Source: Bacillus bingmayongensis (GTDB lineage: Bacteria; Bacillota; Bacilli; Bacillales; Bacillaceae_G). Taken from it: 64,000 bases of DNA. Each line of letters opens with the position of its first letter. Positions within the stretch are counted from its first letter, which is position 1. Location of the stretch: contig NZ_JH921517.1 in the NCBI RefSeq assembly GCF_000299035.1, forward strand, positions 733,317 to 797,316, given 5' to 3'. Below are positions 45,962 through 54,772 of this stretch, one piece after another. Both the position numbers and the translations under genes were made by a program. Below the pieces are notes generated by a model. That model did no database searches and was not told the DNA's origin. It saw only the letters and a list, made by a program, of their open reading frames with translations.

Positions 45962-46711
45962 TTAACGGGGACAGACGGAAATAAAACATACGTCATCTAA
46001 ATCAACTTCTACGATTTTATTAGCAACTTTTATTTGTATTTTAGCTGGGGGTCTTAAATCATCATCAATATCTTCTTCCTGAACATCAATTAATATCCCT
46101 TGTATAGGTTCTTCCTCATGTTGCAGTCGAATTGTAATTTTCTTTCCAATAAAGCCTTGTAAGTAAAGTGATAAAGAAATACCAAAGAAAGTATTAATTA
46201 AAAGGGGATTTGCTGCTACTGTTTTTCCAAAATGTAATATTAAATTTTGCCGAATTGGTGGAGTAAAGTTAAATGGTAAAGGTTGAGGTATAGGATTTTG
46301 ATTACAATCTCGTTTCAATAAACAAAGTTGTAGATATGGAATCAGTACTTTTCCTTTTTTTTCGTTTGTTAACTCAATGAAATCTTTCCCTGCATTTGTT
46401 AAAGTTCCTATTAGTTTTTCCTGTGTAGTGTCACATGCAATAGTTGCTTGTACTTTTAAACCACGAAGTGTTAAAAGAAAAAGCTGTAAAGCTCTTGTGT
46501 TTTCTGGATCTCTTGGATTTGAAATAACATGGAGTAAGTTATTTGCTTCTTCAATGCACTCTTGTAATTGATTTAATTCTTCTTGTGGAAGTGAACTGTT
46601 AGGAGAAGGGAAGGCTGGTGGGGCATCCGGAAAGCAAGTAGATAATGGAGGACAGGGAGTGGTATTAAAATAAGTTGGAATCCAAATTGGGTTTGGGTTG
46701 TCCTTTTTCAT
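45962..46711 (-). CDS. Oxidase-cluster protein with two beta-rich modules
   Basis: This 249-residue soluble protein without a signal peptide has a Pro/Cys/Ser-rich N-terminus (residues 1-40). Module one (about 80-130) contains KVQATIACDTTQEKLIGTL, GKDFIEL and IPYLQL. Module two starts with LILHFGKTVA. Both modules are matched in the gene at 53996 (GRDFVVL, IPYTAI, LMLQFGKTVA), so the two are paralogues flanking the multicopper oxidase. GAAAGGAGCC precedes the start, and a sigma-K-like promoter lies upstream. Function unknown; a role in the spore surface oxidase complex is inferred. Confidence 0.72.
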   Translation of the reverse strand: MKKDNPNPIWIPTYFNTTPCPPLSTCFPDAPPAFPSPNSSLPQEELNQLQECIEEANNLLHVISNPRDPENTRALQLFLLTLRGLKVQATIACDTTQEKLIGTLTNAGKDFIELTNEKKGKVLIPYLQLCLLKRDCNQNPIPQPLPFNFTPPIRQNLILHFGKTVAANPLLINTFFGISLSLYLQGFIGKKITIRLQHEEEPIQGILIDVQEEDIDDDLRPPAKIQIKVANKIVEVDLDDVCFISVCPR

Positions 46712-46735: not shown

Positions 46736-46764
46736 TAAAATATGACTAGTATAATAAATGCGGT
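46736..46764 (-). promoter_or_regulatory. Sigma-K-like promoter
   Basis: Read on the minus strand, ACC (46764-46762) lies 17 bases before CATATTTTA (46744-46736), which fits the sigma-K pattern AC / CATANNNTA. It would drive the gene at 46711 late in the mother cell. Confidence 0.55.
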
Positions 46765-46803
46765 TTTCATACTTTCTGTGCCATCATTCATCCCGTTGTA
46801 TAC

Positions 46804-46851: not shown

Positions 46852-47196
46852 TTAAACTCCTGGGATTTGCTGAATGTTTGGAATTTCAAATTTTCCATCT
46901 TCAATAAAGAACACTTCAATCTCGTCAATGTGTATACGAGCCGTCATATTATCAAATTCATTAATATGAGTTGCTTCAATTTTAATAAAGGCGTAATCTC
47001 CGTTTACTTCAACAATGGTACCGATAATCATAAAAGGAAATTGTGCAATAAGAATGAAAACCCGAGAACCGATGCGGTTATCAAATTCTTGTGTAACATT
47101 AGCACGGCGTAATTCATTAATTAAAGGATTGTTAACTGAACTTCTACACATCGGAGGAAGCGGCTTTTTCTCTTTAAGTTGATCTTGATTTTCCAT
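46852..47196 (-). CDS. Small oxidase-cluster protein, possible MnxE/MnxF-like subunit
   Basis: This is a 114-residue soluble protein. After a polar N-terminus the central part reads FDNRIGSRVFILIAQFPFMI, then GTIVEVNGDYAFIKIEA and ARIHIDEIEVFFIEDG. This alternation of strands suggests a small beta barrel. No signal peptide or Cys cluster is present. Size and company resemble MnxE/MnxF (about 11-12 kDa), which form the copper-binding scaffold of the MnxEFG complex, but I cannot align them from memory. The gene follows its partner after 20 bases. Confidence 0.6.
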   Translation of the reverse strand: MENQDQLKEKKPLPPMCRSSVNNPLINELRRANVTQEFDNRIGSRVFILIAQFPFMIIGTIVEVNGDYAFIKIEATHINEFDNMTARIHIDEIEVFFIEDGKFEIPNIQQIPGV

Positions 47197-47216: not shown

Positions 47217-47588
47217 TCATGGAATTGGAAAGCGAGTATTAGGGTCAAAAGGTAAGAAGAAGGCGATCATTTCAATTGCAAAATTGAGAGGTGTAGGAAA
47301 TTGGAAAAATGGTGCATTATTCATTTTAATGATGACAGGATAAAGTGTAATGAAACCATCTGTTACTCTTACAATTTTTCCAGTGAAAATAGGACGGAAT
47401 GTTTGCCCTAAAATATTTAACTGATCAGAACGTGTAGTTAATAAGATGTTTTTTCCTAATAAATCGACAAATACTTGGTTTTCAGGTAGAGTGGCTGTAT
47501 TTTCTAAAGGGATTTTTTTGCTTGGTGAACAACCTTCTGTTTCAGGTGGTCGTTTTTTATGTTGTTGCTTGGAAGTGTTTTTTGACAT
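47217..47588 (-). CDS. Small oxidase-cluster protein, possible MnxE/MnxF-like subunit
   Basis: This protein of about 123 residues has a basic, Lys-rich N-terminus (KNTSKQQHKKRPPETEG) and a beta-rich body (FVDLLGKNILLTTRSDQLNI, FTGKIVRVTDGFITLYPVII). It ends in Pro/Phe-rich sequence (FPTPLNFAIEMIAFFLPFDP). The start is uncertain: 47588, 47609 and 47621 are in frame and none has a clear ribosome site. It forms a pair with the 46852 gene. A structural or scaffold role beside the oxidase is inferred from context only. Confidence 0.58.
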   Translation of the reverse strand: MSKNTSKQQHKKRPPETEGCSPSKKIPLENTATLPENQVFVDLLGKNILLTTRSDQLNILGQTFRPIFTGKIVRVTDGFITLYPVIIKMNNAPFFQFPTPLNFAIEMIAFFLPFDPNTRFPIP

Positions 47589-47761
47589 ACGTATAGCGTG
47601 AAATCTCATGGTATGTACCAAGAGAAAATACGCATATACCCCCTTTCATTATGGATTTTTACTACCAATCTATTATTATGCAGGAGTTTATACTTTTATT
47701 TTGGGGAAAGAAAAAATTTCCTTTTTTTATTTTTGATATGTGTCTTTTTCATTCTCTTTTT

Positions 47762-47770
47762 CATAAGCTA
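47762..47770 (+). promoter_or_regulatory. Sigma-K -10-like element
   Basis: CATAAGCTA fits CATANNNTA, 32 bases before the start of the 47803 gene. No AC dinucleotide lies at the expected -35 distance, so only the -10 half is supported. Confidence 0.4.
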
Positions 47771-47802
47771 AGAAGAGAATGAGTCAAAGGAGAGGTTGTC
47801 TT

Positions 47803-48423
47803 TTGTGGTCGGATAAACAAAATAGTAGGGGATCACGCCCTTTATTAAATATTCCTGGATCAGTAAAAAAGAAAGAAAGTTTAGAAGATAAAACCCGGAA
47901 AATGAAACAACGTAAAATAGAAGCAGAACAAAGAATAGAAAAGAAAGAAGAAGTGGAGCAAAAAATAGAAGTAGAACAAAGAGTAGAAGAGAAACAAGAA
48001 GTAGAGAAAAAAATAGAAATAGAACAAAGAATAGAAGAGAAACAAGAAGTGAAGCAAAAAATCGAAGCAGAACAAAAAACAGAAGTTCCTATAGTTCAAG
48101 ACGAACAAGTGAGCAAGTTGATAGGTAATAGAGATCCTTTATGTAAAGAGTTGGTCCCATTGAATGTTAATGGTTTAAAGGATAGATTAAATTTCCGTCT
48201 TTTAAAAAATATTGGCAATAGAATAGAAGTAACAATACGTTGTGATGAGAATGATGAAAAGGTTATTGTTGGAAAGATTCAAGAAGTGGGAACAGATTTT
48301 ATCGGCGTATTACAAGAACCAAAAGTGATAGTGACAATACTATGGGAAAATATAAGAGAAATTCGTTTTAAAGATGGAGATGTAATTGTGATTGATCAAC
48401 CTGAGGCAGAAGAAGTGATTTAG
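47803..48423 (+). CDS. Oxidase-cluster protein with Glu/Lys repeat and one beta module
   Basis: This 206-residue protein has two parts. Residues 30-100 are a highly charged repeat built from blocks such as EQRIEEKQEVKQKIEAEQ, probably a long single helix or coiled coil. Residues 125-200 carry the module shared with the flanking paralogues (NRIEVTIRCDENDEKVIVGK, GTDFIGVL, ENIREIRF). TTG 47803 was chosen because AAAGGAGAGG precedes it; ATG 47779 has no ribosome site. It is transcribed opposite to its neighbours. Function unknown. Confidence 0.68.
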   Translation: MWSDKQNSRGSRPLLNIPGSVKKKESLEDKTRKMKQRKIEAEQRIEKKEEVEQKIEVEQRVEEKQEVEKKIEIEQRIEEKQEVKQKIEAEQKTEVPIVQDEQVSKLIGNRDPLCKELVPLNVNGLKDRLNFRLLKNIGNRIEVTIRCDENDEKVIVGKIQEVGTDFIGVLQEPKVIVTILWENIREIRFKDGDVIVIDQPEAEEVI

Positions 48424-48448: not shown

Positions 48449-48486
48449 AGGCTATCCCTAAAAAAGCAGGGATAGCCTATTTTTTA
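48449..48486 (+). terminator. Terminator after the 47803 gene
   Basis: AGGCTATCCCT and AGGGATAGCCT are perfect 11-base arms followed by ATTTTTTT. It also lies just behind the convergent oxidase gene. The same GGCTATCC stem sequence occurs in the 46804 terminator. Confidence 0.9.
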
Positions 48487-51400
48487 TGGATTTCGTAAAG
48501 GAGGGAGTTTGTTATTATTCTTTTTTAGTACCCGAAGTATACCCCACATACCAAGTTCAATATCCCAGCGAATGTTACCCGAGCGGTACATATAATCCCC
48601 AGGTCTCCCGTTTAGGCCACCAGCTCCATGTGCAATGACGAAATTTGATCTGGAACCGACGCTATTTTCTCCTTGGACAGCGGTAAAGGTTGAGTATAAA
48701 TTATTCTCATTTCGGAGCCATGAATGACCGTGTATTGTAAAAACATGTGCTCGTGGTTTGTCAGCAGGAAAAGTATAACGAAAGATAATTGGATCATTTA
48801 CATGTGCTAAAAAGATCGGTGTAGCAGGATCTCCGTGAATTTTTGTACTAAATACTTTTGAAACATCTCGATTTTTCTTTAAGCGATGAATGATGCGTTC
48901 TGAGCGGTAGTTAAAGCCGCGAGATCCTTGATCTTCTGGATCTTCTAATTCTTCTTCTGGTTCTATAAAAATTGGTTCAGGATCAATAATAAGGTTACCA
49001 TTTTTATCTACGAGGCGAACACCATCATGCATCAATAAAACGAACTCACGAAATTCTGGGAAAAGTGGATGTGAAATAACTGCTTGATTACCAGTTCGAA
49101 TTGGCGTGCGTTTTATAGGATCGAGATGAAGAGCTCCTGCTTGTTCTGTAATTAGCATGCCAAAAGCTCCATGGTGCCGGTGATTACGTAAATCAGCCAT
49201 ACCCCAAAGATTACAAGTACCGATGTTACGATCAATAAACCAACGATACGTAATACTTTCCCCAGGTGCTACGGTTTGATCAGGATTAAATCCAACTGTT
49301 GCCCCATCTGAACCTAGAACGTCATATGCGACCATTTGTGCATGAAGAGACATTCGTCTTGATGGTGTGAAGATAACATCTTCATCAGGCACTTCTGGAT
49401 AACCATGAAGTTCTCCTTCATTATGAAATAGCTCTGTTAATTGGTTGTGAAGTGTAACTTCTACACATTCACCGGTATTTGCACGTAATATAAGTGGTTC
49501 GGGGTTTATTTTTCCGCTTTGTATGTTTTCAACATCTTCTTTTAAAGCGAAAATAATACCAAATGGATCATTATCACCAGCTTTGTTATATTTAATTTTT
49601 GTTTGAAATGCAACAACTTCAAATTTTCGAACCGGTGCATTCGGTGAACAAGGCTTACCAGGATCTGTTGCTGGTGGTGGATTCTCTCCAGTAGGTTTTG
49701 GCAAAGGCTTAGTTCTTTTTGGTGGCTGTGGTCGATCAGGAAGAGGGAATAAATGAGAAACCCGTTCTTTAAATGTGCGTAATATTCCCCAAGCGCCGAG
49801 CCAAATATCATCAATTCCACCGAAATGATATAGCATATCAAAATCGCCATCGCCTTCAATAGCAAATTCAGCTGTAAAAGCTTCTGAAATGCCAATGATT
49901 TGCTGCTGAGTAAATTCTGATTCTAAATCAGGACGATTTCTGTGCCAACGTTGTCTGTGTAAGTTAAAGCTATGAGATTCTTCATGAGCACCTTGGATTA
50001 TACGAAGACGTACTGGATCCCCGTTATAAGTTTGTAATAATGGAGTGACAGGGTCTCCGTGAAGAAAAGAGCTAAAAATAAAAGCTGGATCAGTATCAGG
50101 ATTTACTAACCGAGCTGAGAACGGCTCATTCCGGTAATTAATTGCCATGACACCAGGATCGGCATCAGAACCTGAAAAACCTGGTGGATTAAGCGGTTTA
50201 CCTCGACGATCAAATAGAAGCGAAAAATCATGAACAAATAAGGAAAATTCACGGAAATCAGGAATGAGTGGATTTGTAATGATTGCTTGTGTACCTGATG
50301 GTATTATTTCTCCTGTACGAGGATCGAGAAATTGAGACCCTTTTGGTTCAATACAGACTCCACCAAATAACCCGTGTTGCTGATGCGAATTTGCAAATAG
50401 ATGGTCATGAAAGAAAACAGCTTTTAATTCTGCATCTGCAAACCATTGGAATTGGATTGTTTCGCCTCGTAAAGCGCTGCTATCATAATTCCAACCAACG
50501 TTAGCAGCATCAGAAACGAGGGGGTCAAATTTTACGAAATGTACGTGAGTACCTGCTTCGTATGTTCGTTCTACAAGTTGAAACGCATTTCCACCTAATG
50601 TTTCTGGAAATTTATTTGTAAAGTTAATACGAATACACTCACCGGCATTCGCACGAATGACAAGGGGTTCTGGTTTTTTACGGCCGGATAACACAGCTTC
50701 TTCATCTTCTTCTAATACATATATACGGCCTTCGGGATCATTCCATCCTTCTTTGTTATAGATAATGGGAACTTGAATGCCGACAATATTAAAAACTCGT
50801 TCTACTTTCGTACCTTCTGGACAAGGATTCACAAATACTGCACCAGGACGAGCGTTTGGATCAAATTGATTAATTTCAAGCTTAGTTGACTCGCGGCCTC
50901 CTACAATTCCAAGTGGTGGTCGAGGCGCTTTACAACCAAACACACCAGGAATAAAGTTTGGGAACCCTGGTTTTTCTTTTGTCGGTGCAGGTGGTATTGG
51001 CCGATCAGGAAGCGGCTGTAATGCTGCGATTGGTACACCGTTTGGATAAAATTGGCTACCGTCTTGTAATGTATTAAAAATACGGTTTAGTCCCCACATT
51101 CCCTCGCCAAAATGAGGATAAAGATGACAATGAATAATAACATCACCAAATGCCCCTTGTAAACTTCCCGCGCCGTATAAAGGTGAAACAGTAAATGTAC
51201 TCTGCGGACCGAATGACAATGAGTCAATTAACATAGAATTGACATTATTACGTTCAAATAGCCATTGATGAACATGGTAATGAAAGACATGGGTTTCTTT
51301 TACTCCGCCATGAATAACTCGAATTTTAAGAGGGTCTCCTACGTAAGCTCGTAAAATAGGGGTGGCTGGATCGCCGAATACCCAGGAATCATGATGAACT

Positions 51401-52128
51401 TCTTCGCCCTCACAGTCAGGACATACAATACCCTCTTGAATAAGGCGAACGCGATTTCGCATCGGTTCAGACCGGTAATTAATAGAGTGTGTTTCGCCAT
51501 TTTGTAATGTATGAGGATCAATTGATTTGGCTCCAGTTAAATCTTTTACTTCCATTTCATCGTGGAAAAAACATGCGAATTCCCGAAAGGAAGGCAAAAG
51601 TGGATTATGAATATCTGCATAAACTCCGCTGTTAATAGGTAAGCCTGTTATCGGATCTGTCCATGTAGATCCTTTTGGTTGTGCAATTAATGCTCCAAAT
51701 AAACCATGTACGTTACTTCCTTCTTCGCTGGAAAGAGGATTACCTAAATCAGAAAAAAGATGGATTTCTTCTCGAATGATTTCCCAAGTATAAATTCGTT
51801 TTTGTCCAGGCGGAACAGTAGTATCTTTGTTATTTCCTACAAATGCGCCATCAGAAGTCTGTACATCATACTCCGCTAACTGAATATGCATGGAAGTACT
51901 AAAAGGTAATTGGTTTTCAAAGGTTATTTTCACGGTGTCTCCAACATTTGCACGAATAACGAGTGGTTGCACCAGATCTACCGTTGAAAAGGGATTTTCG
52001 TCTACGAGCTTTTTTATTTTACTGACATTTTCTTTTAAAACATATATCTTGCCTTCAGGATCGTGATCGCCAAAGTTATTAATAACAATACGAATCGGAA
52101 TGGCCACTACATGATACTCCCTCAGCAT
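48484..52128 (-). CDS. mnxG: Giant multicopper oxidase, MnxG-like
   Basis: This protein has 1214 residues and several cupredoxin repeats; the repeat start NDPEGRIYVLEED-like sequence recurs. Ligand motifs lie at HYHVH (283-287), HCH with a distal Met (IIHCHLYPHFGEGMWG, 333-344), HVH (528-530) and FFHDH (573-576). The type 1/type 3 Cys motif thus lies before the other half-sites, the permuted order known for MnxG, the 1217-residue Mn(II) oxidase of Bacillus sp. SG-1 spores. C-terminal domains keep the fold with few ligands. The start at 52128 has GGAGGGGG nine bases upstream. There is no signal peptide, consistent with mother-cell assembly. Mn oxidation is inferred; other metals are possible. 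Confidence 0.85.
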   Translation of the reverse strand: MLREYHVVAIPIRIVINNFGDHDPEGKIYVLKENVSKIKKLVDENPFSTVDLVQPLVIRANVGDTVKITFENQLPFSTSMHIQLAEYDVQTSDGAFVGNNKDTTVPPGQKRIYTWEIIREEIHLFSDLGNPLSSEEGSNVHGLFGALIAQPKGSTWTDPITGLPINSGVYADIHNPLLPSFREFACFFHDEMEVKDLTGAKSIDPHTLQNGETHSINYRSEPMRNRVRLIQEGIVCPDCEGEEVHHDSWVFGDPATPILRAYVGDPLKIRVIHGGVKETHVFHYHVHQWLFERNNVNSMLIDSLSFGPQSTFTVSPLYGAGSLQGAFGDVIIHCHLYPHFGEGMWGLNRIFNTLQDGSQFYPNGVPIAALQPLPDRPIPPAPTKEKPGFPNFIPGVFGCKAPRPPLGIVGGRESTKLEINQFDPNARPGAVFVNPCPEGTKVERVFNIVGIQVPIIYNKEGWNDPEGRIYVLEEDEEAVLSGRKKPEPLVIRANAGECIRINFTNKFPETLGGNAFQLVERTYEAGTHVHFVKFDPLVSDAANVGWNYDSSALRGETIQFQWFADAELKAVFFHDHLFANSHQQHGLFGGVCIEPKGSQFLDPRTGEIIPSGTQAIITNPLIPDFREFSLFVHDFSLLFDRRGKPLNPPGFSGSDADPGVMAINYRNEPFSARLVNPDTDPAFIFSSFLHGDPVTPLLQTYNGDPVRLRIIQGAHEESHSFNLHRQRWHRNRPDLESEFTQQQIIGISEAFTAEFAIEGDGDFDMLYHFGGIDDIWLGAWGILRTFKERVSHLFPLPDRPQPPKRTKPLPKPTGENPPPATDPGKPCSPNAPVRKFEVVAFQTKIKYNKAGDNDPFGIIFALKEDVENIQSGKINPEPLILRANTGECVEVTLHNQLTELFHNEGELHGYPEVPDEDVIFTPSRRMSLHAQMVAYDVLGSDGATVGFNPDQTVAPGESITYRWFIDRNIGTCNLWGMADLRNHRHHGAFGMLITEQAGALHLDPIKRTPIRTGNQAVISHPLFPEFREFVLLMHDGVRLVDKNGNLIIDPEPIFIEPEEELEDPEDQGSRGFNYRSERIIHRLKKNRDVSKVFSTKIHGDPATPIFLAHVNDPIIFRYTFPADKPRAHVFTIHGHSWLRNENNLYSTFTAVQGENSVGSRSNFVIAHGAGGLNGRPGDYMYRSGNIRWDIELGMWGILRVLKKNNNKLPPLRNP

Positions 52129-52220: not shown

Positions 52221-53474
52221 TTATAAAAAAAGGTAATTATAAAATCCTATCCATTCATGAATTATAATATTACATAATAAAATACTTAATTGAAAACAGA
52301 GCGAAAGAGAGCTGTTTTTTTTCTGCTTGATAAACATGTGTAGATGTATTAAACAAAGGAGAATGGTTAGTAATTGAATCGTGAAAAATGCTGCTCCAGA
52401 TGTATTTAAATTCATATAAATAAACAAATTATAGGTGAATAAAATCGCTGCTAAAATACAAGCATATAGATGAAATTTAAAAAGAAGAGACTGAATAAAT
52501 AGTTGCTTTTGAAAAACAGTTATAAATAAGTAACCACCTCCCAAAATAGTAACAATATATAAATAGATATTTTCAAAAACTATTGTAAAAAGAGATGGAA
52601 ATATAGTTAGGGTATAGGCTGTCATACTTTTAACAAACAGAATAAAAATTACCCATATAATACAAACTACATTTGAGCGGGAAAGAAAGAAAAAGCCCAT
52701 GAAAGCTAGTGAAAGTAAGAGAATCCAGGCAACTCCATATAATATATCTATAGGTATTGCTACTATTTTTTCATTCATATTGAAATCAATTGTACTAATG
52801 GATTGGATGATGAGTAAAAGTAATGTCGCGAGCAAAAAAAATAATTGGAACATAAAAAGATTAGTTTGATAACGTTTGAAATTTATAGAATTAGTCGATT
52901 TAAGCAAACTTCCCCATATAATCCATCCAATTAACGCAATGATACTAACATACTGAAATACACTCATGAAATAAAGAAGCATAATCCAAGTGTTGTTTGA
53001 GACGGTTGCGAAAATATTTCCGCAAAATTGAGAATCATACTTAAGTTGAAAGAGGGAAAGAAACGAAAAGATGGATCGTTTCGCTGTGTCTTTTGACAGC
53101 GTATCGATTGTAAATATGTAAGAGTCACGAATCACTTCCCCAGTATGCAATGGTATATAATAAATAACGGTATATATCCCGCTTGTTAATGGGGGTAATT
53201 GTATAGATAAAGTTGTTTCGTTATTCGAAAATTCAATCGGACCTTTAACCATGTTCGTTCCTTTTTCATCAAAAATTTGAATAGTAGCTTTTTCTTTATT
53301 GATTTGAGCTGAAAAAGTCATTGAAAGATTTGATGGAGCATTTGTCAGTTTCTGATTAGGCCCAGGGTCCGTTTGTATAGTGTTTGTTTCTGCAAAAACG
53401 GGTTTTGTTTGCAAAAAAAGACAGATAAAACTAAATAAGATGAGTATACGTTTCCATCTAAGAAGTTTGCGCAT
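52221..53474 (-). CDS. CopC/CopD-like copper-handling membrane protein
   Basis: This 417-residue protein has a signal peptide (residues 1-28, ending VFAET), then a CopC-like beta domain (PGPNQKLTNAPSNLSMTFSA, LPPLTSGIYTVIYYIPLHTG). About eight membrane helices of CopD/YcnJ type follow (IIALIGWIIWG). The N-terminal His that binds Cu(II) in CopC is missing: the mature protein begins near Glu-Thr. A single His stays in PLHTGEV. It probably supplies or senses copper for the oxidase encoded next, with which it shares orientation and a short gap. Confidence 0.75.
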   Translation of the reverse strand: MRKLLRWKRILILFSFICLFLQTKPVFAETNTIQTDPGPNQKLTNAPSNLSMTFSAQINKEKATIQIFDEKGTNMVKGPIEFSNNETTLSIQLPPLTSGIYTVIYYIPLHTGEVIRDSYIFTIDTLSKDTAKRSIFSFLSLFQLKYDSQFCGNIFATVSNNTWIMLLYFMSVFQYVSIIALIGWIIWGSLLKSTNSINFKRYQTNLFMFQLFFLLATLLLLIIQSISTIDFNMNEKIVAIPIDILYGVAWILLLSLAFMGFFFLSRSNVVCIIWVIFILFVKSMTAYTLTIFPSLFTIVFENIYLYIVTILGGGYLFITVFQKQLFIQSLLFKFHLYACILAAILFTYNLFIYMNLNTSGAAFFTIQLLTILLCLIHLHMFIKQKKNSSLSLCFQLSILLCNIIIHEWIGFYNYLFL

Positions 53475-53503: not shown

Positions 53504-53917
53504 TTAATTTCGAACGGAAAAGCGTAGCAAAATGAAAGATAAAAATACAACTACGGTTGTGCAAATAATTAAGAAAGCGGGCTGTGTTGAGTGTAAACCA
53601 AGCATCGGTCCCATGAGTCCAGACATAATACCACTTGCGACGCCTGTTAGCAGTGTTTGATAATCAACTAATGCTCCAAACACAATGCCAACAGCAACAG
53701 CAATTATCGTTGTGACAATTGTAATTACTCCTTCATCTAAAGGGAATTGTGATCCGAGAACGGTACCGACAGCTAAACCAATAGCAGTACTAGATAACAT
53801 TGCAATATTCATACCTAAATGATAGCCTATGAGATGCCGAGATTTGTATAAATGGAAGTATGAAATAGTTGCGATAAAAAAGTAGCTAAATAAAATAATT
53901 GCACTTAAAAAATTCAT
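53504..53917 (-). CDS. Four-helix membrane protein of the oxidase cluster
   Basis: This 137-residue integral membrane protein has four helices and small-residue packing motifs (GLAVGTVLGSQFPLDEG, GVASGIMSGLMGPMLGL). I do not recognise a named family. The start at 53917 follows GGAGGTG; the frame from 53935 begins inside that site. It leads a probable leftward operon with the CopC/CopD-like gene and the oxidase gene. The Gly/Met-rich helices would suit a channel or metal-handling role, but this is speculation. Confidence 0.65.
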   Translation of the reverse strand: MNFLSAIILFSYFFIATISYFHLYKSRHLIGYHLGMNIAMLSSTAIGLAVGTVLGSQFPLDEGVITIVTTIIAVAVGIVFGALVDYQTLLTGVASGIMSGLMGPMLGLHSTQPAFLIICTTVVVFLSFILLRFSVRN

Positions 53918-53935
53918 TTGTGTTTTCACCTCCAT

Positions 53936-53964
53936 ACTAAACTATGAGTTACCATCATAAAATA
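53936..53964 (+). promoter_or_regulatory. Sigma-K-like promoter in a palindrome
   Basis: CATAAAATA (53956-53964) matches the sigma-K -10, with AC at 53936-53937. It overlaps a perfect palindrome, CATCATAAA and TTTATGATG around ATA (53953-53973), between the divergent genes. Confidence 0.45.
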
Positions 53965-53995
53965 TTTATGATGAATGAAGAAAAAGGAGGTTTGT

Positions 53996-54772
53996 ATGGA
54001 GGAGAAGGGCATAACAAAGGTTCATACTGAGGATCGTCTTGTTTTGGACTATAAGGAACAAAAAGGAGAAGGATATATATCTCCAGCTAGTGCTTTGCCG
54101 ACTCATGAATTAAAGATGCTCCAAGAATACATGCATGGTGTTAATTTAAAAGTGCTAGGTGAATGCTTACCAGAGCGAAAACAAGTGATGATGCTAATGA
54201 AGTTTTTTAAGCATAAACGTTATCAACGCGTGGAAGTTTTTTCGAATCGGGGTGGGAGTAGCTTACATACAGTAGCGAAAGTAAATGAAATTGGCCGAGA
54301 TTTTGTTGTGCTTACAACATTAATGGAGCGTATTTTTATCCCGTATACAGCGATTCAAAACGCGAATATTCCTTATGCAATACCGAATGTTTCTACATCT
54401 CATCAGCACTTAATATATGATGAAACTCTCCGGAAAAAATTGATGCTACAGTTCGGGAAAACCGTAGCAGAACAAGTAAATTTAAAACAACAATTTTTTG
54501 AAGAGGCTTTTATGAATCATTTGCAATTATGGGAAGGGATGTATATAAAACTATACGATCAAAAAGAGGTTTATACAGGACGAATTACAAAAGTTACGAA
54601 TGAATATGTATATTTAAAGAAACGTAGCAATACACAAGTGATACGAATAAAAGATATTACTTATATGAATATCGTGCGCATTTTTACAATGTTTTCAAGC
54701 CTTGTAAGAAGAACAAAGAGAATGCTTCATCAATTAAGTAAAAAAATAAAAAATCTCATCGTAACACGATAG
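53996..54772 (+). CDS. Oxidase-cluster protein with two beta-rich modules, paralogue
   Basis: This 258-residue soluble protein is divergent from the membrane protein gene. It shares both modules with the 45962 gene: RVEVFSNRG, KVNEIGRDFVVL and FIPYTAI in module one, and LMLQFGKTVA with GRITKVTNEYVYLKK in module two. A basic tail ends it (RRTKRMLHQLSKKIKNL). ATG 53996 follows AAAGGAGG; the in-frame ATG at 53975 has no ribosome site. Its function is unknown, but the paralogue on the other side of the oxidase makes a common complex likely. Confidence 0.72.
   Translation: MEEKGITKVHTEDRLVLDYKEQKGEGYISPASALPTHELKMLQEYMHGVNLKVLGECLPERKQVMMLMKFFKHKRYQRVEVFSNRGGSSLHTVAKVNEIGRDFVVLTTLMERIFIPYTAIQNANIPYAIPNVSTSHQHLIYDETLRKKLMLQFGKTVAEQVNLKQQFFEEAFMNHLQLWEGMYIKLYDQKEVYTGRITKVTNEYVYLKKRSNTQVIRIKDITYMNIVRIFTMFSSLVRRTKRMLHQLSKKIKNLIVTR

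What the first reader, a model, noticed from the sequence alone, without database searches (positions are those of the whole stretch)
48484..52128. MnxG-type giant multicopper oxidase in a cereus-group genome
Length (1214 against 1217), the permuted ligand order with HCH...M before HVH/HDH, and motif positions all match MnxG of Mn(II)-oxidising marine spores. This would give the spores a surface that oxidises Mn(II) or a similar metal. The gene neighbours differ from the classical mnx operon, so the complex may have its own subunits.
Basis: partly seen in the sequence, partly recalled or inferred. Interest (0 to 1): 0.75.

Follow-up and report, generated by a model that had tools for sequence, protein, structure and literature searches.

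The report
Sister-lineage spore manganese-oxidase gene cluster
This stretch encodes a second, sister version of the copper enzyme complex known from spores of manganese-oxidising Bacillus, here in a relative of Bacillus cereus, with its core enzyme intact but its helper genes rearranged and partly stripped of metal-binding residues.

Summary
The protein is real: 1214 aa, minus strand, a full-length MnxG homologue (57% to PL-12 chain 9bxa_A, 58% to SG-1) with all 12 copper ligands in permuted order. The inference from the neighbours is wrong: mnxE, mnxF, mnxA and mnxD homologues lie beside it, plus p249, p214 and a CopC/CopD gene. MnxG splits into two supported lineages: clade I with SG-1, clade II with the window, Priestia megaterium plasmids, Lysinibacillus and others. 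Sco-type MnxC lies near 38 of 57 clade I and 0 of 25 clade II loci, CopCD near 2 of 57 and 12 of 25. Of 76 loci holding E, F and G, only the window has them not contiguous; its CopCD has lost the CopC copper ligands and its p214 is the poorest in His+Cys of 66. Best reading: a working Mnx-type spore oxidase of a sister lineage, probably for Mn(II), with altered metal supply. Substrate, spore location and activity are untested. New variant of a known kind.

The parts
48484..52128 (-). mnxG homologue (clade II), giant multicopper oxidase, 1214 aa
47217..47621 (-). mnxE homologue; start uncertain (TTG 47621, ATG 47609 or ATG 47588; no clear ribosome site)
   Evidence: 9bxa_B E 2.6e-22; 48% over 93 positions to SG-1 MnxE
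46852..47196 (-). mnxF homologue, 114 aa
   Evidence: 9bxa_E E 5.7e-14; 34% over 74 positions to SG-1 MnxF
45962..46711 (-). p249: homologue of the gene that follows mnxG in SG-1 (L070:13670); paralogue of mnxD
47779..48423 (+). p214: relative of proteins, many of them His/Cys-rich, beside other mnx loci; here the N-terminal part is a Lys/Glu-rich repeat (48-nt unit, 47914-48085)
52221..53474 (-). CopC-CopD fusion, 417 aa; lacks copper ligands kept by its relatives
   Evidence: Pfam CopC 42.5 bits vs cut-off 23.3; alignment of 14. The CopD part rests on homology to other loci, not on a Pfam hit
53504..53935 (-). mnxA homologue, small protein, hydrophobic; likely start 53917
   Evidence: 34% over 118 positions, E 5e-21
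53975..54772 (+). mnxD homologue; likely start 53996 (AGGAG 6 nt upstream)
   Evidence: 42% over 220 positions
48449..48478 (.). hairpin between the convergent p214 and mnxG genes, probable shared terminator
   Evidence: 11 pairs; but the region has 7 terminator-like sites against 6.0 in shuffles; -20.2 kcal/mol, z -4.98
46736..46765 (-). SigK-like promoter AACC-N17-CATATTTTA before p249
   Evidence: consensus recalled
53956..53964 (+). SigK-like -10 CATAAAATA before mnxD
53938..53946 (-). SigK-like -10 CATAGTTTA before mnxA
47762..47770 (+). SigK-like -10 CATAAGCTA before p214

Best explanation
A chromosomal, rearranged mnx-type locus of a sister lineage (clade II) of the MnxEFG oxidases. MnxG is held by a ring of MnxE and MnxF, made late in sporulation and placed on the spore surface. 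A metal ion, most likely Mn(II), docks beside the type 1 copper next to the invariant EEVHHDSW stretch (E242-W249), gives single electrons to that copper (H280, C334, H339, M344), and these pass through the HCH motif to the trinuclear cluster between domains 2 and 3, where O2 is reduced to water; Mn is deposited as oxide. MnxA, MnxD, p249 and p214 are coat or assembly parts. Shown: homology, ligands, partners, gene order, lineage. Inferred: complex, spore location, substrate, docking site, sporulation control.
For: MnxG full-length homology and 12 of 12 ligands. MnxE and MnxF present, and mnxEFG is the minimum set for activity in PL-12, where the spores oxidise Mn (PMC5622069, passages). MnxA and MnxD present. 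E242, E243, H245, H246, D247 are invariant in 86 of 86 clade I and II rows, though only partly kept in the two distant rows, and absent from the aligned stretch of the four two-domain laccases printed; H245 lies 35 residues before T1 His280, the spacing of H940 to H975 at the iron site of ceruloplasmin (recalled, not tested). 20 of 422 strongly conserved columns are changed, against 22 of 427 and 19 of 423 in two other clade II proteins, so MnxG does not look decayed. SigK-like -10 boxes near 4 of 8 locus genes against 5 of 41 other window genes.
Against: No activity or localisation data. No experimentally tested clade II member was seen in the papers searched. MnxE and MnxF of clade II (22 and 22 proteins) lack a His kept in 48 of 56 (MnxE) and one kept in 36 of 60 (MnxF) clade I proteins, so accessory copper chemistry may differ. 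The window's CopCD has lost CopC copper ligands, and its p214 is the poorest in His+Cys of 66. E-F-G are not contiguous, unlike 75 of 76 loci. The SigK signal is weak (small numbers; motif hits are not evidence of function); of the four boxes only that of p249 has a matching -35, and mnxG, mnxF, CopCD and mnxE have no such box.
Confidence: 0.6

Rival explanations
1. Same complex and fold, but the physiological substrate of clade II is not Mn(II): a spore-surface oxidase of Fe(II), Cu(I) or phenols.
For: Clade II is a separate lineage with its own accessory set and lineage-specific residues in MnxG (R492 for His, E292 for Asp, two inserted residues at 764-765, R725 for Gly) and in MnxE/MnxF. 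Three species carry both lineages, which fits different tasks.
Against: All 12 copper ligands and the EEVHHDSW stretch are the same in both lineages; no lineage-specific change listed falls on a ligand.
Confidence: 0.25
2. A locus in functional decline in this host: the enzyme gene is still open but the rearrangement and loss of metal-binding parts leave it poorly metallated or unused.
For: Only locus of 76 with E-F-G split; CopCD without CopC ligands and without the CopD His; p214 with 1.4% His+Cys against 6.1-29.9% in 65 homologues; MnxG is second of 85 rows in deviations at conserved columns.
Against: All eight genes are open, with a ribosome site at a likely start for most, not for mnxE; MnxG keeps all ligands; its deviation is within the range of other clade II proteins; a strong hairpin separates p214 and mnxG.
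Confidence: 0.12
3. One reading: MnxG-like oxidase with unrelated, new subunits.
For: Gene order and strands do not look like the classical operon.
Against: MnxE, MnxF, MnxA and MnxD homologues are present by direct alignment.
Confidence: 0.03

Closest known systems
MnxEFG (Mnx) of Bacillus sp. PL-12 (PDB 9bxa) and the mnx locus of Bacillus sp. SG-1 (L070)
   Same: MnxG over its full length, all copper ligands; MnxE, MnxF, MnxA, MnxD and the gene after mnxG all have homologues
   Different: Sister lineage; no MnxC (SCO1/SenC in SG-1); one MnxA/B-type gene where 44 of 57 clade I loci have two; CopCD added; E-F-G split; His and Cys that clade I MnxE and MnxF mostly keep are mostly missing
Clade II mnx loci of Priestia megaterium plasmids (L081, 70% MnxG), Neobacillus niacini (L002), several Lysinibacillus and Ureibacillus species
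   Same: p214, CopCD, MnxA, MnxD, E, F, G, p249 set in the fullest ones
   Different: In those the order is p214-CopCD-A-D-E-F-G-p249 with A reversed; CopC ligands are kept where the N-terminus is covered; their p214 proteins have more His+Cys
Pseudomonas-type MnxG (NCBIfam NF041487, 1894 positions)
   Same: Distant homology, 347 bits
   Different: Far below the family cut-off of 3100 bits; other size. That the model is of the Pseudomonas type is recalled
Two-domain (small) laccases, e.g. 7pu0, 8p9u
   Same: T1/HCH domain aligns with MnxG domain 2
   Different: Lack the EEVHHDSW stretch in the alignments printed; about 280-350 residues long
YcnJ (CopC-CopD-YtkA) of B. subtilis, PMC13344008
   Same: CopC and CopD architecture of the 52221-53474 protein
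   Different: YcnJ needs a Cu-binding His in CopC and a conserved His in CopD (passages); the window protein lacks the His at the matching CopC place and a His kept in 12 of 13 relatives in CopD; that this is the YcnJ CopD His is inferred

Membership tests
Mnx-type (MnxE-MnxF-MnxG) oxidase | Full-length MnxG homologue with all T1 and trinuclear ligands in the permuted order | tested here: met
Mnx-type (MnxE-MnxF-MnxG) oxidase | MnxE and MnxF homologues encoded at the locus | tested here: met
[quoted passage not shown]
   stoichiometry in PL-12 from PMC5622069 (passages)
Mnx-type (MnxE-MnxF-MnxG) oxidase | Oxidation of Mn(II) and Mn(III) | not testable with these tools
   needs protein or spores
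Mnx-type (MnxE-MnxF-MnxG) oxidase | Made in sporulation and placed on the spore | tested here: inconclusive
   SigK-like -10 near 4 of 8 genes vs 5 of 41; no localisation data
Classical SG-1-type mnx operon (clade I) | MnxG groups with SG-1 | tested here: not met
   clade I 62 rows, clade II 23 rows with the window; SH-aLRT 99 and 97 on 32 rows
Classical SG-1-type mnx operon (clade I) | MnxC (SCO1/SenC) beside it | tested here: not met
   no hit in the 64-kb window; but 19 of 57 clade I loci also show none within the stretch held, so this is typical, not strictly defining
NCBIfam NF041487 MnxG equivalog | score at or above 3100 bits | tested here: not met
   347.3 bits
CopC (Pfam PF04234), for 52221-53474 | score above the gathering cut-off | tested here: met
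   42.5 vs 23.3
CopC (Pfam PF04234), for 52221-53474 | copper-binding His/Asp residues | tested here: not met
   alignment of 14 CopCD proteins; ligand identity recalled and from PMC13344008 (passages)

The most novel reading that the evidence does not exclude
Clade II is a second kind of Mnx machine in Bacillota: same catalytic subunit and scaffold, but MnxE/MnxF without most of the His and Cys that clade I keeps, and often with a CopC/CopD gene where clade I has the Sco-type MnxC. The window shows its most reduced form seen here, in which the catalytic subunit would work without the accessory metal-binding parts at its own locus, so the E/F ring would be a scaffold and not an electron or copper carrier; its substrate may not be Mn(II).
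Probability: 0.35. Interest if true: 0.7.

Novelty: new variant of a known kind. Interest (0 to 1): 0.5.

Why it matters
According to PMC5622069 (passages) MnxG is the only characterised multicopper oxidase that needs accessory proteins, and what the copper bound by MnxE and MnxF does is not settled. A natural lineage that keeps E and F but lacks most of the His and Cys conserved in clade I gives a direct comparison. It also extends Mnx to a relative of the cereus group and to plasmids of Priestia megaterium, and lets the roles of Sco and CopC/CopD in supplying copper to a spore enzyme be tested by comparing the two lineages, three species carrying both.

Tried and rejected
Rejected: unrelated E and F subunits (homologues found). 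Rejected: membership of the NF041487 equivalog. Not taken as strong evidence: SigK-like boxes alone (4 of 8 vs 5 of 41). Recent island: no clear sign; G+C of the locus is 35.8% against 35.5% for the rest and one search showed no long flanking repeats. But mnxG itself has 40.1% G+C (mutS 36.8, recA-sized gene 39.8), and the lineage is patchy and partly on plasmids, so an older transfer is open. Led nowhere: the host genome and an empty site. No own genome is held; six relatives by mutS lack mnxG (0 of 6; the same query matched in 9 of 299 genomes), and in the two of them looked at (G405, G383) only DUF2515 and CBO0543 sit together as in the window. Fold of MnxD/p249: no model obtained; sequence hits to the RimP C-terminal SH3 domain in 11 of 33 p249 and 5 of 36 MnxD members at E 0.01 or less, none for the window's own two at that level, hint at small SH3/Sm-like barrels; MnxE-MnxF, p249-p214 and MnxD-p214 profiles are related (E 2.4e-6, 2.5e-10, 5.5e-10).

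Limits of the counts: the genome scan found 115 relatives and kept 80. L014 and L074 have no single ORF of 1000-1700 aa, are not in the tree and were put in clade II by their 68% identity. Loci reach about 10 kb on each side, some less, so absences are absences in the stretch held. L003 and L023 overlap on one contig. MnxA/MnxB, MnxD/p249 and p214/p232 labels overlap because these are homologous pairs. The profiles were built from the same loci. The place of the window inside clade II differs between the two trees.

Papers: PMC5622069, PMC3600357, PMC3039467, PMC12410098, PMC13344008: passages only. All others: search listings and abstract starts. No description of the clade II lineage was seen in searches of an open-licence library; most subscription papers, and any on 9bxa, were not seen.
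Full report
Observation. The ORF lies on the minus strand at 48484..52128 and codes for 1214 aa. It matches the solved MnxG chain 9bxa_A from end to end (E 0, 1645.9 bits), with 57% identity over the residues seen, and SG-1 MnxG with 709 of 1226 positions identical. Pfam passes its cut-off only for one multicopper oxidase domain, at 58-148; NCBIfam's MnxG model of 1894 positions gives 347 bits against a cut-off of 3100. The copper ligands, named by the usual motifs (recalled), are H280, C334, H339, M344 for type 1 and H283, H285, H333, H335, H528, H530, H574, H576 for the trinuclear site. In an alignment of 23 clade II, 63 clade I and 2 distant rows they are all conserved in both clades, but for Ala in place of H339 in the 9bxa chain; since the other 62 clade I rows have His, I infer that the solved chain is an engineered form. 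The two distant rows do not keep all ligands.

Neighbours. 47217-47621 is MnxE (2.6e-22 to 9bxa_B; 48% to SG-1), 46852-47196 is MnxF (5.7e-14 to 9bxa_E; 34%), 53975-54772 is MnxD (42% over 220 positions), 53504-53935 is MnxA (34% over 118). The names A and D follow the gene order of the SG-1 locus (recalled). 45962-46711 (p249) is a relative of MnxD and of the gene after mnxG in SG-1, 47779-48423 (p214) a relative of the protein encoded further on. 52221-53474 is a CopC-CopD-type protein (for CopC; for the rest). MnxC, which in SG-1 is a SCO1/SenC protein (98.8 bits), has no match in the window.

Two lineages. A scan of species genomes found 115 relatives, of which the best 80 were kept; plasmid records added Priestia megaterium at 70%. 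A FastTree of 87 rows separates 62 rows with SG-1 (clade I, support 100) from 23 rows with the window (clade II, support 99); IQ-TREE with a mixture model on 32 of these rows gives 99 and 97. The outgroup rows are long, so the root is less sure than the split, and the place of the window within clade II is not settled. The PL-12 chain was not in the trees; it agrees with clade I at 28 of 28 diagnostic positions seen. Peribacillus cavernae, P. glennii and Oceanobacillus piezotolerans have both lineages. Searching the flanks with profiles (recounted in 113): MnxC in 38 of 57 clade I and 0 of 25 clade II loci; CopCD in 2 of 57 and 12 of 25; no locus has both; two MnxA/B-type genes in 44 of 57 clade I loci (one in 3, none in 10), one in 15 of 25 clade II loci and none in 10. 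These counts are not independent of descent, some loci are cut short, and two of the 25 were put in clade II by identity alone. A sample of 299 genomes of the phylum held 9 with MnxG at E 1e-100 or less.

What is special in this window. Of 76 loci holding E, F and G, 75 have them close together on one strand; only the window does not (6 others incomplete). Here the genes lie as A-CopCD-G and E-F-p249 on the minus strand, with p214 and D on the plus strand, and a strong hairpin between the ends of p214 and mnxG (48449-48478; the number of terminator-like sites in the region, 7, is no more than in shuffles, 6.0). The CopC part lacks the N-terminal His kept in 10 of 10 other proteins that reach that place and the Asp kept in 12 of 12, with the His two places on; the CopD part lacks a His kept in 12 of 13 (L079 lacks it too). 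In B. subtilis YcnJ such residues are needed under copper limitation (PMC13344008, passages); that the positions correspond is inferred. p214 has 1.4% His+Cys against 6.1-29.9% in its 65 homologues, its N-terminal part being a Lys/Glu-rich repeat; several clade II homologues (L002, L005, L071, L081) are also poor in their N-terminal part. MnxE and MnxF lack residues that clade I mostly keeps: MnxE His 48 of 56 vs 0 of 22, MnxE Cys 36 and 37 of 56 vs 5 and 5 of 22, MnxF second His 36 of 60 vs 0 of 22; the first MnxF His is kept in 57 of 60 and 22 of 22. PMC5622069 reports a disulfide in MnxE and a possible copper site of three His in MnxE/F (passages); that these are the same residues is inference.

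Is the gene decaying? 20 of 422 columns that are at least 95% conserved in the others are changed in the window MnxG, second of 85 rows; two other clade II rows have 22 of 427 and 19 of 423. All ligands are kept. I read this as a maintained enzyme in a fast-changing locus; decline is kept as a rival.

Mechanism. PMC5622069 (passages) gives for PL-12: mnxEFG are the minimum for activity, the complex is one MnxG with three MnxE and three MnxF, Mn(II) and Mn(III) are both oxidised, and the spores, not the vegetative cells, oxidise Mn. The window has all three parts. A candidate docking place is E242, E243, H245, H246, D247, invariant in 86 of 86 clade I and II rows and not present in the four aligned laccases printed; its distance to T1 His280 equals that of the iron-site His of ceruloplasmin to its T1 His (recalled). 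Electron path and oxygen reduction follow from the multicopper oxidase family. Sporulation timing rests on SigK-like -10 boxes near 4 of 8 locus genes against 5 of 41 others and on the spore origin of Mnx; it is weak. Substrate and place on the spore are not shown.

Host. PepT is 363 of 409 identical to 3ife, the G+C content is 35.5%, and the left part holds core genes (rny, miaB). The host is near the cereus group, perhaps an outlying member; it could not be named.

Verdict. A real Mnx-type oxidase locus, a new variant of a known kind: sister lineage, different copper-handling partners, split genes. Not a classical mnx operon and not a system with unrelated E and F subunits.

Noticed in passing
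L091 (genome G680), ORF of 236 aa beside mnxG: MnxE and MnxF profiles both match one open frame, so E and F look fused there.
   Followed up: no
L017, L021, L023, L027, L043: Two mnxG genes close together; in L043 each has its own mnxE and mnxF.
   Followed up: no
L092-L095: MnxG relatives (55-57%) in other Bacillota without mnxE or mnxF within the short flanks held, about 1.5 kb a side or less.
   Followed up: partly
L080:10007-14605: MnxG ORF of 1532 aa, about 300 aa longer than most others, with a CopCD gene after it although it groups with clade I.
   Followed up: no
G001:C163:92926-96507 (Neobacillus niacini genome of L002): A second, more distant MnxG relative (45%) in the same genome as a clade II mnxG.
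   Followed up: no
PDB 9bxa chain A, position aligned to window H339: Ala where the other 62 clade I rows have the type 1 copper His; probably an engineered chain.
   Followed up: partly
L070:4150-6758, L002:3533-6104 and others: A collagen-like protein (BclA_C hit below its cut-off) and a PKD-domain protein lie beside 9 of 57 clade I loci each, and beside 4 and 3 of 25 clade II loci, perhaps spore surface parts; no match in the window.
   Followed up: partly
window 47914-48085: 48-nt tandem repeat, 3.6 copies, coding a Lys/Glu-rich stretch in p214.
   Followed up: yes
Priestia megaterium plasmids NZ_CP085418, NZ_CP085429, NZ_CP073298, CP109763 (first one read as L081): Clade II mnxG on four plasmids of about 97-140 kb typed as non-mobilizable; in L081 the full accessory set is there.
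   Followed up: partly
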